A stretch of DNA of 64,000 nucleotides, taken from assembly GCF_014701235.1 (NCBI RefSeq), contig NZ_AP022873.1, positions 806,001 through 870,000 of the forward strand, in the 5' to 3' direction. Made by a program: the position numbers and the translations under genes. This document shows positions 30,802 through 39,414 of this stretch, one piece after another. The DNA comes from Dissulfurispira thermophila (lineage in GTDB: Bacteria > Nitrospirota > Thermodesulfovibrionia > Thermodesulfovibrionales > Dissulfurispiraceae). The stretch's first letter is position 1, and every line of letters begins with the position of its first letter. A model generated the notes under the pieces. It was not told where the DNA came from, made no database searches, and saw only the letters and a list, made by a program, of their open reading frames with translations.

Positions 30802-31637
30802 CCCTAAAACAAACTCTTGACAGGCTTTACACTACATATGACTTCAGGGATAGGATCATTCATGACCCTATAGAATTTCCACATCGTTATAAAAATCCTG
30901 CGGATATTGAGATCGCAGGCTTTATATCCTCTTGCTTTGCTTACGGAAGAGTTGAGCTATTTAAGCCTGTAATAAATAAAGTCCTTTCAAAAATGGGTGA
31001 AAGCCCTTTTATTTTTCTCAGACAATTTAATATTAACAAACAAAAAGATCTATTTTCAGGCATTAAATATAGGTTTAATGAAACAGGTGATATTGTATGC
31101 CTGCTCTATGCAATTCATAGGATTCTTAAGGATTTCGGAAGCCTTGAGACTCTCTTTAAGCTCGGATATAACAATAGCGATGATAAGATTGCAGCCGCTA
31201 TTTCATATTTTGTGAGTGAAATTCTTAGAATTAATACCACTACAGTTTATGGGAAAAATATAAAAACACATGGTTTCCTTCAATTTCTCCCATCTCCTAC
31301 AAAAGGAAGTTCATGTAAAAGAATAAACCTTTTTCTGCGTTGGATGATAAGGGACAAAGACATTGATTTCGGGATATGGAAAGGGATTCCTAAAAATAAA
31401 TTAGTCATCCCCTTAGATACACATATAGCACGCATATCTAAATGTCTTGGTTTTACGAAGAGGTCATCACAGGATTGGAAAACGGCAGTTGAGATTACAG
31501 AGGCTTTAAAAATATTTGATCCCGAAGACCCTCTTAAATACGATTTTGCATTATGCCATCAAGGAATATCAAAGCTCTGTAGCAAAATGAATTGTAAAGA
31601 GTGCGATTTTAATTATGGTGTTGTGAATACCCTTTGA
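30798..31637 (+). CDS. TIGR02757/DUF2400 family protein
   Basis: 279 residues with segments typical of this family: DRIIHDPIEFPHRYKNPADIE, FLPSPTKGSSCKRINLFLRWMIR and LDTHIARISKCLGF, the last resembling the helix-hairpin-helix fold of DNA glycosylases. The C-terminus carries a CSKMNCKECDF cluster that could bind metal. Catalytic role unknown. Overlaps yajQ by four bases and the end of the convergent cusA by about 29 bp. Confidence 0.85.
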   Translation: MTLKQTLDRLYTTYDFRDRIIHDPIEFPHRYKNPADIEIAGFISSCFAYGRVELFKPVINKVLSKMGESPFIFLRQFNINKQKDLFSGIKYRFNETGDIVCLLYAIHRILKDFGSLETLFKLGYNNSDDKIAAAISYFVSEILRINTTTVYGKNIKTHGFLQFLPSPTKGSSCKRINLFLRWMIRDKDIDFGIWKGIPKNKLVIPLDTHIARISKCLGFTKRSSQDWKTAVEITEALKIFDPEDPLKYDFALCHQGISKLCSKMNCKECDFNYGVVNTL

Positions 31638-34600
31638 ACTTTCTCCCTTTCCATATCATATATATTGCCGGATAAATGAGTAATTCAAGAATGGTGGATG
31701 TTACTACGCCGCCAACCATAGGTGCAGCAATTCTTTTCATCACATCTGAACCAGCTCCGTGGCTGAACATTATTGGAATAAGACCGGCAAGAATAACGCT
31801 GACGGTCATTATTTTAGGGCGAATCCTTTTTACTGCACCGTGCATAATTGCCGCTTTTAAATCATTAATGCCATTCAATTTACCTTCCTTTCTCCATTTC
31901 TCATATGCTAATTCGAGATAAAGCAGCATAACAACGCCTGTCTCAGCATCCAATCCTGCAAGTGCTATTATCCCCACCCATACGGCTATGCTCATGTTGT
32001 AGTTGAGTATATAAAGAAGCCAAAATGAGCCGACAAGCGAAAATGGCACTGCGAGCAGCACTATCATTGTCTTTATAACCGACTTTGTATTAAGGTAGAT
32101 AAGCACAAAAATGATGAGCACGGTGAGGGGAATAACAAGTTTCAGCCTTTCATGTGTTTTGAGGAGATATTCATATTCGCCGCTCCACTGAAGGCGGTAG
32201 CCTTCTGGGATCTTTAAAGATGCGATTTTCTTTTTTGCCTCTTCAACATATCCGCCCACATCTCTGCCTGAAAAGTCTATATATACATATGATGCCAAAA
32301 GCCCTTCTTCGCTTTTGATTTGTGTAGGTCCTCTTACTATTTTTATATCTGTTAGCTCACCGAGAGGAACTTGAGTTAAGGCTATAGGCAATGGGCTATT
32401 GCCCATGACCTCTGCTCTATTGCCTGGCATCATAGGCACGAGTACCCTTTTTAATTTTTCTATGTCACCTCTTAATTCCCTTGAATAACGGACATTTACT
32501 GGATATCTCTCCCTTCCTTCAACAGTGGTGGTAAGGTTCATTCCCCCAACGGCAGACTGTATTATTTCGTTGACATCATCTACTGTCAATCCATATCTTG
32601 CTATTTCTTTGCGATTGATATTAAAGTCAAGAAAATATCCTGTTGTTATTCTCTCAGCATATACGCTTCGGGTGCCCGTAATATCTTTTAAATGGCGCTC
32701 TAATTCAATGCCTAACCTTTCTATCTCCTCAAGGTTAGATCCCATTATCTTAATGCCTACAGGAGTCCTGATGCCTGTTGAGAGCATATCTATACGAGCT
32801 TTTATCGGCATTGTGAATGAGTTTGCCACTCCGGGGATTGTGAGGGCATCATTCATCTCGTTTTTTAGGCTTTCTACTGTAATGCCAGGCCTCCATTTTG
32901 ATTCAGGCTTTAGGTTGATAACTGTCTCGAACATCTCAAGCGGTGCTGGGTCTGTAGCAGTTTCAGCCCTACCAGCCTTTCCAAATACCTGTGCTACTTC
33001 AGGAATACCTTTCAATATCTTATCCTGCATTTGTAAGAGCCTTGAGACCTCTGATATGGAAGCAGCTGGCACTGTTACAGGCATATAAAAAAGTGTGCCT
33101 TCATATAATGGAGGCATGAATTCAGAGCCGAGTTTCAGGAAGGGATAAGCGGTTATTGCCATGATGATTAATGCAATGATGATAACCATCTTTTTAAATC
33201 TAAGGGCAAGATGTACTATAGGCTCATAAATTTTATAAAGTATTCTACTAATCGGATTTTTTTCTTCTGGTCTTATCTTGCCTTTAATGAAAAGTGTCAT
33301 TAATACAGGTGTCAGGGTTATAGCAAGGAATGATGAAAAGAGCATTGCAAAGGTCTTTGTATAAGCCAGTGGTTTAAAGAGTCTTCCTGCCTGTGCCTGT
33401 AAAGTGAATACTGGAAGGAAGCCAACAGTAATGACAAGCAATGAGAAAAATAGTGAAGGGCCAACCTCCTTTGCAGCATTTATTATTACATCTATCCTGC
33501 TGCCCTGTCTGCCGTGTTCTTCCCATTCTTCAAGTTTTTTATGTGCGTTTTCTACCATTATGATAGACGCATCTACCATTGCTCCGATAGCAATAGCAAT
33601 GCCGCTTAGGCTCATGATATTTGATGTTACACCGAGATAATACATGCATATGAACGAAATGATGATTGCAATAGGCAGTGTCAGTATGACTACAAGGGCG
33701 CTTGGTAAATGGAATAAAAATACAATACAGACTGCACTCACTGCAACAGAGAGTTTTATGATTTCCTCTTTAAGTGTATTGATAGATTGGTGTATGAGGT
33801 CAGACCTGTCGTATGTTGCTATAATCTTTACGCCTTTTGGCAGGCTTGGTTCAATATCTTTTTTAATTTTTTCCTTAACCCTGTCTATGACATTAAGGAC
33901 ATTCTGACCAAATCTTACAACTACAATTCCTCCTGTCACTTCTCCTTTACCATCAAGTTCAGCAATACCCCTCCTTATTTCCGGTCCCAGTTGTATGTTT
34001 GCAATATCTTTTAAAAATACAGGTGTTCCTGCTCCATTGGTACCTACAGAGATATTTTCAATATCACTGAGATTTTTAATGTAGCCACGCCCCCTTACCA
34101 TATATTCTGTGCCTGAGAACTCCAGCACCCTTCCTTCAACATCTCTATTGCTTTTTTTAATTGCCTCCAGGACCTTTGGCAGAGGCAAATTGTATGTAAG
34201 AAGTTTGTTTGGATCTATGGTAATCTGATACTGTTTTACAAACCCGCCGATGCTTGCAACCTGTGAAACACCTTCAACGCTTTCAAGGGCGAGTTTTATG
34301 TTGTAGTCCTGAATAGATCGAAGTTGTGCGAGGTTATGCTCACCTGTCTCATCTATTACAGCATATGAAAATCCCCATCCTACGCTTGTTGCATCTGGCC
34401 CGAGCACTGGATTGACATCTGCTGGAATTTTGTTTTTTACTGCCTGGAGATATTCTAATACCCTGCTCCTTGCCCAGTATATGTTTGTCCCTTCCTCAAA
34501 GATGACATAGATAAACGAACTTCCTAAAAAGGAAAATCCGCGCACTGCCTGTACCCTTGGAGCAGCAAGGAGAGTGGATGTTATAGGGTATGTTATTTGG

Positions 34601-34788
34601 TCTTCTACAAGGTCTGGGCTCCTTCCGGGCCATTCAGTGTAGATGATTACCTGGGTGTCGCTCAAATCAGGTATTGCATCAAGGGGTGTCTTTTTTAATG
34701 CCCAGTATCCCCATACTATGAGAAAAATCACGAACAGAAAAATGATAAACTTATTTTTTGCGCTGTATTCAATTATCTTTGCAATCAT
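31609..34788 (-). CDS. cusA: Cu(I)/Ag(I) efflux RND transporter CusA
   Basis: Inner-membrane proton-driven pump of a tripartite efflux system, 1059 residues with the twelve-helix RND layout and two periplasmic loops. The segment TMPIKARIDMLSTGIRTPVG matches the copper/silver HME-RND group and carries the metal-path methionine region. Near residue 800 an extra GNRAEVMGNSPLPIAL lies between the usual VPM and QVPLGEL, encoded by a dispersed repeat (32380-32430). Third component in an operon with cusB and tolC-like genes. Confidence 0.92.
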   Translation of the reverse strand: MIAKIIEYSAKNKFIIFLFVIFLIVWGYWALKKTPLDAIPDLSDTQVIIYTEWPGRSPDLVEDQITYPITSTLLAAPRVQAVRGFSFLGSSFIYVIFEEGTNIYWARSRVLEYLQAVKNKIPADVNPVLGPDATSVGWGFSYAVIDETGEHNLAQLRSIQDYNIKLALESVEGVSQVASIGGFVKQYQITIDPNKLLTYNLPLPKVLEAIKKSNRDVEGRVLEFSGTEYMVRGRGYIKNLSDIENISVGTNGAGTPVFLKDIANIQLGPEIRRGIAELDGKGEVTGGIVVVRFGQNVLNVIDRVKEKIKKDIEPSLPKGVKIIATYDRSDLIHQSINTLKEEIIKLSVAVSAVCIVFLFHLPSALVVILTLPIAIIISFICMYYLGVTSNIMSLSGIAIAIGAMVDASIIMVENAHKKLEEWEEHGRQGSRIDVIINAAKEVGPSLFFSLLVITVGFLPVFTLQAQAGRLFKPLAYTKTFAMLFSSFLAITLTPVLMTLFIKGKIRPEEKNPISRILYKIYEPIVHLALRFKKMVIIIALIIMAITAYPFLKLGSEFMPPLYEGTLFYMPVTVPAASISEVSRLLQMQDKILKGIPEVAQVFGKAGRAETATDPAPLEMFETVINLKPESKWRPGITVESLKNEMNDALTIPGVANSFTMPIKARIDMLSTGIRTPVGIKIMGSNLEEIERLGIELERHLKDITGTRSVYAERITTGYFLDFNINRKEIARYGLTVDDVNEIIQSAVGGMNLTTTVEGRERYPVNVRYSRELRGDIEKLKRVLVPMMPGNRAEVMGNSPLPIALTQVPLGELTDIKIVRGPTQIKSEEGLLASYVYIDFSGRDVGGYVEEAKKKIASLKIPEGYRLQWSGEYEYLLKTHERLKLVIPLTVLIIFVLIYLNTKSVIKTMIVLLAVPFSLVGSFWLLYILNYNMSIAVWVGIIALAGLDAETGVVMLLYLELAYEKWRKEGKLNGINDLKAAIMHGAVKRIRPKIMTVSVILAGLIPIMFSHGAGSDVMKRIAAPMVGGVVTSTILELLIYPAIYMIWKGRKFKGYSQHHN
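32380..32430. repeat. in-frame GGCTATAGGCAATGGG repeat inside cusA
   Basis: ggctataggcaatgggctattgcccatg holds a palindrome (GGCAATGGGCTATTGCC-like) and matches the arm at 2150-2165 for 16 bases. Read in frame it adds about 16 residues to CusA within a periplasmic domain. Confidence 0.65.
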
Positions 34789-34831: not shown

Positions 34832-36064
34832 TTAATTTATTACCTCTTTTTGTTTTTTTGTAATTGGTTCAATACCTTTTAGTTTTGCCTCAGAGTCTAT
34901 GAGGAATGTGGCGGATGAAGCTACTTTTTCGCCTGCCTTCAACCCCGTTATTACCTCCCTTAATCCTTCGGCTCTCAATCCGAGTATTACTTCTCTTGGT
35001 TCAAAATACCCTTCTCCTCTGTCAACATAGACTATTTGCCGTGTGCCGGTGTCTATAACTGCATCCTCTGGAATGGTGAGTTTGTTTCCGATGTTAATCT
35101 TTATCTCTACATTGGTAAACATCTGAGGTTTGAGTTGCCCGCCGGGATTTGCAATGGTAAATCTTACTTTTGCTGTTCTTGTTTCGCCTGCAAGTGTAGG
35201 GTAGACATAATCTATTGCTGATGAAAACTCCTTACCCGGAAAATAGCTAAGGTTGATGTTTGCCTTCTGTCCTATTTTTATCAAGGGTAGTTCATATTCG
35301 TAAATATCCGAAATTATCCAGATTGTTGATAAATCAGCAACATCAAATAGCTTTTCTCCGGGCATAACACGCATGCCCTGCAATGCTGTCTTCTGCACAA
35401 TATAGCCGTTTACAGGGCTGTAGATGGTAAGTGTCCTTATAGGTTTTCCTGTCTCCTCTATTTTTTTAATTTGTTCATCTGTTATATCCCATAATCTTAG
35501 CCGTTGCTTTGCAGCCTCTATGATTGCCTCTGCATCCTTCAGAATGAGATTGCTCATTGTCTCATTTTTTATCTCTTTGCTTTGTTTTGCCCATTTTGTT
35601 ACATTTATAAATTCTTGCTGGGTTGCAAAAAGCTCCGGGCTGTAAATCTCAGCGAGAGGTTCTCCTTTTTTGACATATCTTCCTGTATAATTCACATAGA
35701 GTTTTTCTATCCATCCTTCAAATTTCGTGTTGACTGTAAACAATCTACGCTCATCATATTCTATACGTCCGACTGTCCTGATGATCTTCTGGAGGGGCTT
35801 TATAGACACCTCTACTGTCTTTACTCCTATTAACTGCTGTTTGTCAGGAGGTATTTCCACTGTGGGAGGCTCTTCAGACATTTGTCCCTCTGTCGTTGTT
35901 TGCTGCTCAGATGTGCTTTGATGTTCAGAAGGCTGTGCTTTTAACGAGTCAGCACCCCTATTTTTCAAAATAGTATTCAGAGATATTGCCTTTGAAAAAT
36001 AAAGTAGAAGACTTGCAATTAAAATCAATCCCACTGCAACCATTAATAATTTTCTCTTTTTCAT
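34832..36064 (-). CDS. cusB: RND efflux periplasmic adaptor, CusB-like
   Basis: 410 residues. N-terminal membrane anchor (about 7-25), a linker rich in Gln/Glu/Thr, then the CusB-type beta-barrel/lipoyl region GWIEKLYVNYTGRYVKKGEPLAEIYSPEL, a helical hairpin and a second barrel with KLTIPEDAVIDTGTRQIVYV. Bridges CusA with the outer-membrane channel. Its start overlaps the tolC-like stop (ATGA-type). Confidence 0.9.
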   Translation of the reverse strand: MKKRKLLMVAVGLILIASLLLYFSKAISLNTILKNRGADSLKAQPSEHQSTSEQQTTTEGQMSEEPPTVEIPPDKQQLIGVKTVEVSIKPLQKIIRTVGRIEYDERRLFTVNTKFEGWIEKLYVNYTGRYVKKGEPLAEIYSPELFATQQEFINVTKWAKQSKEIKNETMSNLILKDAEAIIEAAKQRLRLWDITDEQIKKIEETGKPIRTLTIYSPVNGYIVQKTALQGMRVMPGEKLFDVADLSTIWIISDIYEYELPLIKIGQKANINLSYFPGKEFSSAIDYVYPTLAGETRTAKVRFTIANPGGQLKPQMFTNVEIKINIGNKLTIPEDAVIDTGTRQIVYVDRGEGYFEPREVILGLRAEGLREVITGLKAGEKVASSATFLIDSEAKLKGIEPITKKQKEVIN

Positions 36065-37308
36065 TTCTTGGACTCCTCACGCTTAATGCTAATTCCTGCT
36101 ATGGCTTCAACCCTTGCTATTGCCTTTTCCCTTTCAACAAACTGATTCCAATAGAGGGTCTCAAGTTCGATAAAGGATTTCAGCCTTGATATGACTGTAA
36201 GGGCATCAATCTTTCCTGTAATATATCCTGATAGCGATAATTCAAAATCCTGATATGTTTTTGGTATTAATCCATTTTTATATAATTCCATTAATTTTTC
36301 TGCTGTTTTAATCATGGAATAATTATCCCTGATTGCTGAAGACAGCATTATCCTGGTTGATTCAAGTTCATGTCTTGCCTCTGACAAAGATGCCTCTGCC
36401 TCATTGACTGCCTGTTTCTGCTTTGTTTTATAAAAGATAGGGATATTAATGGTAGCTGTAAGACTCCACATATCAGGTACTTCCTTATTTCTTAAAAAGT
36501 AGCTACCGTTGATTGTAAAGTCAGGATAGTATTCCTTTCTTGCTATTTGAACCTTTGCCTCTGCTCCTGCAATTATCTTCTCTTTGACCATTATCTCGGG
36601 TGAATTTGCATATGCTAAATTAATTAATCCCTCCATATTTTGCTGCAACATTGTATATGGCAGTTCAGCGGGTCTGCCGAGTGGCGAATTGACATCTCTG
36701 CCTATAGTGGCATTAAGCATTGCTTCTATGGATTGTATTTTTTGTCTGAGCATTTCCTCTTTCTCAAGGAGCATATACTTTTCTGTCTGTGCCATTAATA
36801 CCTCTTGCTGTGGTGCCATGCCTGTTGAATATCGAGAAAGTGCTGCATCCTCTATCCTTGAAAAGAGAGTGGTTTTTTCTTTAATAAGGTCGATATTCTT
36901 ATATGCAAGAAACAGCTCATAATAAAGCTCCTTGACCCGTGCTATGGTCTTTAAACGAACTGATTCAGACAATGCCTTTTGGCTTTCAGCATCCCGTGAA
37001 GCTATTTCGCCTTTTAGAGATAATTTTCCAGGAAAAGGGAATGTCTGCGACGCAGAGAACATCCACCGAGAATCTGGAGAACCTGAAAAGTTATAGAGTT
37101 TTCTGAAGCCTCCATTTTGATAGCCAAACATTACCATCGGATCAGGAAGGCTCTCTGCCTGTGGTATTTTGAATTTTGAGGCAGCAGTTCTTGATTCAGT
37201 TATAAGGATTTCATGGCTGTTTTTCAGTGCCTCGTCAATTAATTGCTGAAGATTGAGTTCCTCGGCAAATACAGGAGAGGCTAATATTAAGGCTAATGCT
37301 AAGCTCAT
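36061..37308 (-). CDS. TolC-like outer membrane efflux protein (CusC role)
   Basis: Outer-membrane channel of the efflux system. Start chosen at ATG 37308, which opens a normal signal peptide (MSLALALILASPVFAEELN). The open frame extends to 37431, but that extra segment (LLHLFTSSPIHLF) is encoded by a 16-bp direct repeat tract. Paired helical repeats typical of OEP follow (ATIGRDVNSPLGRP, ANSPEIMVKEKIIAGAEAKV). Real translation may begin within the repeat-derived leader because no ribosome binding site is seen at 37308. Confidence 0.88.
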   Translation of the reverse strand: MSLALALILASPVFAEELNLQQLIDEALKNSHEILITESRTAASKFKIPQAESLPDPMVMFGYQNGGFRKLYNFSGSPDSRWMFSASQTFPFPGKLSLKGEIASRDAESQKALSESVRLKTIARVKELYYELFLAYKNIDLIKEKTTLFSRIEDAALSRYSTGMAPQQEVLMAQTEKYMLLEKEEMLRQKIQSIEAMLNATIGRDVNSPLGRPAELPYTMLQQNMEGLINLAYANSPEIMVKEKIIAGAEAKVQIARKEYYPDFTINGSYFLRNKEVPDMWSLTATINIPIFYKTKQKQAVNEAEASLSEARHELESTRIMLSSAIRDNYSMIKTAEKLMELYKNGLIPKTYQDFELSLSGYITGKIDALTVISRLKSFIELETLYWNQFVEREKAIARVEAIAGISIKREESKK

Positions 37309-37310
37309 TT

Positions 37311-37434
37311 TGAAGAGGTGAATAGGTGAAGAAGTGAATAGGTGAAGAAGTGAAGTTTTTTCCTTTTTACCTATTAGGTTCTTCACCACTTCACCCCTGT
37401 CCTTTGTCTTCTGTCTTCTGTTTTCTGTCATCTG
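37311..37434. repeat. 16-bp direct repeat and repeat-rich leader upstream of the tolC-like gene
   Basis: AATAGGTGAAGAAGTG occurs twice in tandem (37321-37336, 37337-37352), followed by an inverted related arm (ctattaggttcttcaccacttcacc) and a TCTTCTGT-rich tract. It sits directly at the 5' end of the tolC-like gene and is open in its frame. Confidence 0.7.
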
Positions 37435-37457
37435 CCCTTAACCTTAATCTGTCTTTA

Positions 37458-37853
37458 TTACCTTGCATCCACATTGAATTTCACTGTTGTTGTTTTACTA
37501 CCGCGTGTAATTTTGATTGCTATATTCCATGGTCCTGACATGGAGAGATTCATCTTTGCATTGTACTCGTTGCCTTTTAATTCTGCATTGGTCTTGTAAT
37601 TCATCGCAGGCATACCGGGCATTGCCGGCATAGAGTATTCGACCTTTACCTTCGCATCGGTGACATATTTTCCTGATGCATCCTTAATTTCGACAGTGAT
37701 ATTGTTATCTCCGACAACAGGCGGATTCTTGTCGATTTTTGCAGTTACATCATACTCGCCTGCCTTTTTCTTTACCTCATAATCCTTTGCATAAGCAATC
37801 CCTGCTACTAAAAGCAGGATTAATGTAGATACAGCCAACTTTTTCATGTTCAT
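37458..37853 (-). CDS. YtkA/FixH-like periplasmic protein with Met-rich loop
   Basis: 131 residues with a signal peptide (to about residue 22, AYAKD). An immunoglobulin-like YtkA/FixH domain follows (VTAKIDKNPPVVGDNNITVEIKD). The loop MPAMPGMPAM is methionine-rich, as expected for Cu(I)/Ag(I) binding, matching the efflux operon. AGGAGG lies upstream of ATG and overlaps the stop of the preceding gene. Likely a periplasmic metal carrier or accessory; exact role unproven. Confidence 0.82.
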   Translation of the reverse strand: MNMKKLAVSTLILLLVAGIAYAKDYEVKKKAGEYDVTAKIDKNPPVVGDNNITVEIKDASGKYVTDAKVKVEYSMPAMPGMPAMNYKTNAELKGNEYNAKMNLSMSGPWNIAIKITRGSKTTTVKFNVDAR

Positions 37854-37864
37854 ATCTTTACCTC

Positions 37865-38266
37865 CTATCGCTTAAATTCTTTTTCAACAATATCTCGTAT
37901 CCTTTTTATAGGATAGCCTTTTTTATAAAGCTCGGAAGCCCGCAGGGCCTCCCCCAGACAGATGTCTCACATTGCAGCATGATTGTCAACATAACAGCTC
38001 AGGAGACTTTTGTGTTTAAACACCGGAGACTCCTCGCACATGCAGTAGCAATAGATACTGTCCAGAACCCATGGAATTTCCTTTGCAATCTGATACGCCC
38101 TTTTTGTACGCGCATCGGTAAACAGGTTCGGGTCGAGGGTTGCCCTTGTTTCTCCCTTCCTCAGAGATTCATCTTTCACAGGTTTTTGTGCTGTTGCATT
38201 GCCTGTAAATACTGTGAGAAAAATTACAATCATGACTGGCAATAAAATCAATCTGAATCTTCTCAT
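37865..38266 (-). CDS. candidate selenoprotein: CYCYC/PCYCGC-like secreted protein with in-frame UGA
   Basis: From ATG 38266 (GGTGGTGATT upstream) a signal peptide leads to IYCYCMCEESPVFKHKSLLSCYVDNHAAM, then TGA at 37969-37967, then DICLGEALRASELYKKGYPIKRIRDIVEKEFKR and TAG. Related PCYCGC proteins have a cysteine at the TGA position (CxxC), so the motif here is UxxC. After the UGA, GGAGGCCC-UGC-GGGCUUCC forms an 8-bp stem (one G-U pair) whose loop lies 23-25 bases downstream, as in bacterial SECIS elements. The real stop overlaps the next gene's ribosome binding site. A conventional caller would truncate it by 33 residues plus Sec. Confidence 0.62.
37934..37952 (-). promoter_or_regulatory. 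SECIS-like hairpin
   Basis: Minus-strand stem GGAGGCCC/GGGCTTCC with a TGC loop, starting 15 bases after the in-frame TGA of the CYCYC-like gene. The loop has G in its second position, as in many bacterial SECIS loops. Candidate only. Confidence 0.5.
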
Positions 38267-38291
38267 GTAATCACCACCTTTCTTTTTGTGC

Positions 38292-38606
38292 TTAGTATAT
38301 CGACCTGATCCTTCCTGTCTTACAGTCGAGCAGTATTCTGTCAACAAGCTCCCCATTTTTATAAACCTCTGCCTCTGCAAATCTTCCATCCTGTTTTATC
38401 AAAATTACCCTCAGCCCTTTTTTCGAATAGTAAGCCTTCAGGGCATCTGTTATCTCTTTTTTTGTAGGTTGTCTATTGCAGTATCCGTAATCTCCACATA
38501 AAGGACAATAAGCACCGTATGGAGTAATTTCATCTCCGGAGCTTTTAGAGTAAGCTCCTGAAAGTAAAGAGGCAAACAATATAAATATGAAAACAAGCTT
38601 TATCAT
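38292..38606 (-). CDS. small secreted Cys-containing protein, first gene of the efflux operon
   Basis: 104 residues. Signal peptide (to about residue 20, SGAYS), then YCPLCGDYGYCNR with a possible metal site, and a PepSY-like tail (EITDALKAYYSKKGLRVILIKQDGRFAEAEVYKNGELVDRILLD). It precedes the UGA-containing gene by 25 bp, so it probably belongs to the copper/silver operon. No exact family recognised. Confidence 0.65.
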   Translation of the reverse strand: MIKLVFIFILFASLLSGAYSKSSGDEITPYGAYCPLCGDYGYCNRQPTKKEITDALKAYYSKKGLRVILIKQDGRFAEAEVYKNGELVDRILLDCKTGRIRSIY

Positions 38607-38646
38607 GGCTTAAAGATAACAAGAGATATTGAAGAAATTATGAAGA

Positions 38647-39414
38647 TTAGATTCTCATATCTTTGAGAAATGGAAATTTTGAGCGGACATCTGCCGCCTC
38701 TGATGGATTTATCTCTCCTGTCAGGAACTCTTTTTTATCATCGCCGCAGAGAATATTATTGCCTAATGGACCAAAAATATGGGATGCTCCATGATAGGTA
38801 ATGCCATTACCATCTGTTCCTGTGCGATTAGCGCCAATTACAAAGCATTGATTTTCGATTGCCCTGGCCTTTAGCAGTGTCTCCCAGTGATCTTTTCTGG
38901 AAGCCGGCCAGTTTGCAATAACAAATACTACTTGCACATTTTTTGCTACTTTTCTAAATACTTCTGGAAATCTCAAATCATAACAGATAAAGATGCTACA
39001 TGGAATGTTATCAATATTAAATATAACCGGGTTGCTACCCGCAATATAATATTTATCTTCATCGGAGAAAGAAAAAGGATGAATTTTTGTGTAAGTAGTA
39101 ATGCGAATGCCTTTTCTGTCATAGACAACTGCTATATTCCTGCCTTTTTCTTCATCCTGCTCCTTTACAGGGAAACCAGCAATCAGATATATGCTGTATT
39201 TTTTTGCTATTTCTGACAGCACCAAATTTGTCTCTCCGTTTTCGCTTTCTGCAATGGCAGACACATTCATGGAAAAGCCTGTATTGAACATCTCAGGGAA
39301 GACGATGACATCGCATTTTTCTTTTGTTGCTTTTTTTGCAAAAAACTCTGCCTTTTCGTAGTTTACCTTCTTTGATTCCCAAGCAATATTTAGTTGTATT
39401 AGAGCGATTTTCAT
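38647..39414 (-). CDS. carbon-nitrogen hydrolase (omega-amidase/nitrilase family)
   Basis: 255 residues with the nitrilase triad: Glu in VVFPEMFNTGF, Lys in YTKIHPFSF and Cys in IFICYDLRFPEV. Closest in layout to omega-amidases (YafV type) that hydrolyse alpha-ketoglutaramate or similar amides. Its start lies three bases after the stop of the histidine kinase gene. Substrate not determinable here. Confidence 0.88.
   Translation of the reverse strand: MKIALIQLNIAWESKKVNYEKAEFFAKKATKEKCDVIVFPEMFNTGFSMNVSAIAESENGETNLVLSEIAKKYSIYLIAGFPVKEQDEEKGRNIAVVYDRKGIRITTYTKIHPFSFSDEDKYYIAGSNPVIFNIDNIPCSIFICYDLRFPEVFRKVAKNVQVVFVIANWPASRKDHWETLLKARAIENQCFVIGANRTGTDGNGITYHGASHIFGPLGNNILCGDDKKEFLTGEINPSEAADVRSKFPFLKDMRI

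What the first reader, a model, noticed from the sequence alone, without database searches (positions are those of the whole stretch)
37865..38266. UGA at a cysteine position in a CYCYC/PCYCGC-like copper-operon protein: candidate selenoprotein (UxxC)
Seen: reading continues 33 codons past TGA to a natural TAG, in the same frame and with family-like sequence, and that TAG overlaps the next gene's AGGAGG. The TGA replaces the first Cys of a CxxC in relatives. An 8-bp hairpin follows with its loop 23-25 bases downstream. Known: bacterial SECIS elements lie about 15-37 bases after UGA. Inference: Sec insertion in a secreted protein within a Cu/Ag efflux operon.
Basis: partly seen in the sequence, partly recalled or inferred. 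Interest (0 to 1): 0.85.

Follow-up and report, generated by a model that had tools for sequence, protein, structure and literature searches.

The report
Known CYCXC-family selenoprotein in copper-efflux operon

Summary
On the minus strand, the ORF at 38266-37865 has an in-frame TGA (37969-37967) followed by 33 codons to a TAG that overlaps the next gene's GGAGG. Read through, the protein matches NCBIfam NF041379, "CYCXC family (seleno)protein" (OS_HP4), at 127.9 bits against a cut-off of 90; cut at the TGA it scores only 83. In 65 distinct homologs from the same phylum the site is TGA in 55 and Cys in 10. The segment past the TGA is under purifying selection. An 8-bp hairpin whose loop begins after 22 nt meets the bacterial SECIS model. 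Its pairs are kept in 94% of cells in Sec homologs, 51% in Cys homologs and 66% under synonymous shuffling. The genome has selA, selB, a tRNA-Sec (anticodon TCA) and a selD that itself carries a TGA. The family is not new: two reviews list OS_HP4 (UxxC; PF13798), citing Zhang and Gladyshev 2007. The only modest additions are a conserved Cus/YtkA operon context and the SECIS conservation evidence. The protein's function remains inferred: a periplasmic metal-thiolate or redox accessory to Cu/Ag efflux.

The parts
37865..38266 (-). CYCXC-family selenoprotein gene: 133 residues with Sec at position 100, TAG stop
   Evidence: NF041379 127.9 bits (cut-off 90), PF13798 40 bits (cut-off 25) when read through; 83 and 21.7 bits if cut at TGA
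37967..37969 (-). In-frame TGA read as selenocysteine, first position of a UxxC motif
   Evidence: 55 TGA and 10 Cys codons at the same position in 65 homologs
37934..37952 (-). Bacterial SECIS-type hairpin: 8-bp stem, loop UGC, 22 nt between UGA and loop
   Evidence: Local fold -14.7 kcal/mol; pairing kept in 94% of cells in Sec homologs, 51% in Cys homologs, 66% in synonymous shuffles
38038..38052 (-). CYCMC motif (three invariant Cys)
   Evidence: Invariant with H59, C65, H70, U/C74 and C77 (mature numbering) in a 57-sequence alignment
37458..37853 (-). YtkA-like exported protein, next gene of the operon
   Evidence: PF13115 72.6 bits; conserved neighbour
36061..37431 (-). CusC-like outer-membrane efflux protein
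   Evidence: PF02321 146.7 bits
34832..36064 (-). CusB/CzcB-like periplasmic adaptor
   Evidence: NCBIfam TIGR00999 and CusB model NF007303, both below their cut-offs; RND_mfp TIGR01730 above its cut-off
31609..34788 (-). CusA/CzcA heavy-metal RND transporter
   Evidence: TIGR00914 1114.9 bits, cut-off 701
38292..38606 (-). Small exported CxxC protein (104 aa), upstream neighbour
   Evidence: No family match above a cut-off; found near the homolog in 11 loci scanned

Best explanation
The gene encodes a small exported member of the known CYCXC (OS_HP4, PF13798) selenoprotein family. SelB with Sec-tRNA recognises the hairpin just downstream of UGA 37969 and inserts selenocysteine, giving a 133-residue precursor with a UxxC motif beside an invariant CYCxC motif. 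Well supported by computation: the gene structure, the family, the SECIS-type hairpin and the Sec machinery. Inferred only: in the periplasm the Sec/Cys cluster with two invariant His binds or redox-handles soft metal (Cu/Ag) or thiols in support of the adjacent Cus-type efflux pump (about 0.3-0.4 likely; the stated confidence is for the selenoprotein reading).
For: Family match only complete across the TGA. Complete sel set: SelA, SelB, SelD with its own TGA, tRNA-Sec with anticodon TCA. 55 Sec and 10 Cys homologs aligned at one site. Purifying selection past the TGA: pN/pS 0.25-0.37, equal to upstream. SECIS rules met (rules from PMC13188914); hairpin pairs kept 94% against 66% in synonymous shuffles and 51% in Cys forms; synonymous diversity 0.02-0.07 at codons +5, +7, +11 against mostly 0.3-0.75 elsewhere. 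Sec form tracks SelB: 52 of 56 genomes against 7 of 19 Cys-only, Fisher p 2e-6. Cus/YtkA gene order conserved in about a dozen relatives; one other homolog lies beside a gene whose protein has GMSCTAC and CPC motifs, by eye a Cu-type P-ATPase.
Against: No mass-spectrometry or Se-labelling data. Four genomes with the TGA form lack a detected SelB, all drafts. About ten homologs have a UUA or UUC loop that misses the loop-G rule. The link to copper is not universal: several homologs of the UxLC subgroup sit among housekeeping genes, and in many loci no Cus gene was found.
Confidence: 0.97

Rival explanations
1. The TGA is a true stop and the protein ends after 99 residues; the downstream frame is open by chance.
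For: Open frames this long after TGA are common in the window (21 of 97).
Against: Family match crosses the TGA; same TGA and 33-codon tail in dozens of relatives under purifying selection; RNA-level constraint.
Confidence: 0.01
2. Sequencing error or mutation of a TGC/TGT codon.
For: Cys is found at this site in 10 homologs.
Against: The TGA recurs in 55 distinct homologs from many assemblies, and the hairpin is kept in 49 of these but in none of the 10 Cys forms.
Confidence: 0.005
3. UGA is read as another residue, such as Trp or Cys, by a suppressor tRNA rather than as Sec.
For: None found.
Against: Complete Sec machinery, SECIS-type hairpin, Cys as the alternative state, co-occurrence with SelB.
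Confidence: 0.015

Closest known systems
CYCXC family (seleno)protein, OS_HP4 (NCBIfam NF041379; Zhang and Gladyshev 2007, listed in PMC9312934 and PMC13188914)
   Same: Same family above the equivalog cut-off; same UxxC motif, one Sec
   Different: Nothing essential; here the gene lies in a Cus/YtkA operon, a context not mentioned in the passages read
PCYCGC family (Pfam PF13798), e.g. a lipoprotein of Parageobacillus (PMC13068155)
   Same: CYCxC motif and further conserved Cys
   Different: The member described there is a lipoprotein beside an iron-binding protein; the passage read says nothing of Sec
CcmH N-terminal domain (PDB 2kw0)
   Same: Weak fold resemblance: helical bundle, VIA Z 4.8, rmsd 3.1 over 65 residues
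   Different: No sequence support; may be only a common helical arrangement

Membership tests
CYCXC / OS_HP4 selenoprotein family (NF041379) | Score above equivalog cut-off of 90 bits | tested here: met
   127.9 bits
CYCXC / OS_HP4 selenoprotein family (NF041379) | CYCxC motif and UxxC with one Sec | tested here: met
   CYCMC and UDIC; motif as listed in PMC9312934 and PMC13188914
Bacterial selenoprotein | In-frame UGA with Cys in homologs | tested here: met
   55 U, 10 C
Bacterial selenoprotein | bSECIS: loop 3-9 nt with G in first two, stem 4-16 bp, 16-37 nt from UGA, MFE at most -7.5 | tested here: met
   Loop UGC, 8 bp, 22 nt, -14.7 kcal/mol (rules)
Bacterial selenoprotein | selA, selB, selC, selD in genome | tested here: met
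Bacterial selenoprotein | Se found in the protein | not testable with these tools
   Needs 75Se labelling or mass spectrometry
PF13798 PCYCGC | Score above gathering cut-off of 25 | tested here: met
   40 bits; all 57 aligned homologs match the family
CcmH-type thiol oxidoreductase fold | Same fold and sequence profile | tested here: inconclusive
   Z 4.8 only; no Pfam CcmH match among 57 members

The most novel reading that the evidence does not exclude
The Sec form is a dedicated Cu/Ag-handling selenoprotein of Cus operons, with selenium used as a metal ligand or as a redox switch for metal release: a function not assigned to this family in the sources read.
Probability: 0.3. Interest if true: 0.55.

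Novelty: already known. Interest (0 to 1): 0.22.

Why it matters
It confirms that an unaided reading of sequence can pick out a real selenoprotein, but the family has been known since 2007. What remains open is its function; the conserved Cus/YtkA neighbourhood gives a testable lead toward periplasmic Cu/Ag handling.

Tried and rejected
Rfam search of 37400-38700 found nothing; I did not check which SECIS families Rfam holds. PDB by sequence gave no relative, with one protein or with the profile. Foldseek gave no match at E 0.001 or better; the best named natural resemblance, the CcmH N-terminal domain, has no sequence support, and CcmH itself was not found in 40 relatives, so no direct comparison was made. 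The column-wise synonymous shuffle is a weak control, since the columns are nearly invariant (0.922 against 0.939 observed); the pooled-codon shuffle and the Cys homologs are the informative ones. The automatic bSECIS test by itself is permissive: 6 of 10 Cys forms and 13-30 of 55 synonymous shuffles also pass somewhere in the stretch, so the fixed-column test carries the weight. The promoter and terminator scan of the region found no more than shuffles.

Full report
Observation. The minus-strand ORF begins at ATG 38266 and runs 99 codons to TGA 37969-37967, then 33 further codons to TAG 37867-37865. That TAG overlaps the GGAGG ahead of the next gene's ATG. The stretch read through is ...CYVDNHAAM-U-DICLGEALRASELYKKGYPIKRIRDIVEKEFKR. 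On its own the open frame is weak evidence: 21 of 97 TGA-ended ORFs of 60 codons or more in this window also have 33 open codons beyond.

Family. Read through, the protein scores 127.9 bits with NCBIfam NF041379, whose name is "CYCXC family (seleno)protein" (cut-off 90), and 40 bits with Pfam PF13798 PCYCGC (cut-off 25). Cut at the TGA it falls to 83 and 21.7, below both cut-offs. Two reviews list hypothetical protein OS_HP4 (in the later one, CYCXC family protein, PF13798) as a selenoprotein family with a UxxC motif, citing Zhang and Gladyshev 2007 (PMC9312934, PMC13188914). The discovery claim is therefore already in the literature.

Machinery. The genome (2.37 Mb, one contig) holds SelA (E 6e-159), SelB (378 bits, cut-off 242), SelD (327 bits, cut-off 125) and a tRNA-Sec with anticodon TCA. 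SelD carries its own in-frame TGA, in AAGUAAKMGP.

Homologs. In a sample of 396 genomes of the phylum, 82 have a match to the family, and most of those matches contain one TGA. Of 65 distinct homologs extracted, 55 have TGA and 10 have a Cys codon at the same position. In nearly all Sec forms the tail is 32-35 codons; one homolog has UxxU. Genomes with the Sec form nearly always have SelB (52 of 56), those with only the Cys form less often (7 of 19; Fisher p 2e-6). The four exceptions are draft assemblies.

Selection. pN/pS beyond the TGA is 0.37 over all Sec homologs and 0.25 in the closest clade, the same as upstream (0.35 and 0.25). The tail is therefore maintained as protein sequence.

SECIS. 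The hairpin GGAGGCCC-UGC-GGGCUUCC has its loop after 22 nt, G at loop position 2, an 8-bp stem and -14.7 kcal/mol. This meets the published bacterial model (3-9 nt loop, 4-16 bp, 16-37 nt, at most -7.5; PMC13188914). 46 of 55 Sec homologs meet the model by an automatic test, but that test is permissive (6 of 10 Cys forms pass too). At the window hairpin's exact columns 94% of pair cells are standard, against 51% in Cys homologs and 66% (sd 1.8) when codons are replaced by synonyms; 49 of 55 Sec forms and 0 of 10 Cys forms keep at least 7 of 8 pairs. Synonymous diversity falls to 0.02, 0.04 and 0.07 at codons +5, +7 and +11, whose third positions lie in the stem, against mostly 0.3-0.75 elsewhere. 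About ten Sec forms have UUA or UUC loops that miss the loop-G rule.

Context and function. Next in the operon come a YtkA-like protein and a CusC-CusB-CusA heavy-metal RND pump; the order Sec protein, YtkA, CusC, CusB, CusA recurs in about a dozen relatives, in several with a two-component system and the 104-aa CxxC protein upstream. Another homolog lies beside a protein that by eye is a Cu-type P-ATPase (GMSCTAC and CPC motifs), but some subgroup members lie among housekeeping genes. Twelve columns are invariant, including six Cys/Sec positions and two His. The model is confident (pLDDT 92.9) and all-helical, with no solved relative found. A weak resemblance to the thiol-handling CcmH domain (Z 4.8, rmsd 3.1, 65 residues) is only a lead. 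I infer a periplasmic metal-thiolate or redox accessory of Cu/Ag efflux; this step is not shown.

Verdict.

Noticed in passing
G000 C1:665512-666426 (L056): selD of this genome is itself a probable selenoprotein gene, with TGA in AAGUAAKMGP.
   Followed up: partly
window 38292-38606, minus strand: A 104-aa exported protein with CPLCGDYGYC, no family match above a cut-off, recurs near the selenoprotein in 11 of the loci scanned.
   Followed up: partly
L084:5175-5276: A homolog with UxxU instead of UxxC, two in-frame TGA codons.
   Followed up: no
L060, L069, L075, L081, L091, L093, L096: Sec homologs with a UUA or UUC loop in a hairpin at the same place, outside the published loop-G rule for bacterial SECIS.
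   Followed up: partly
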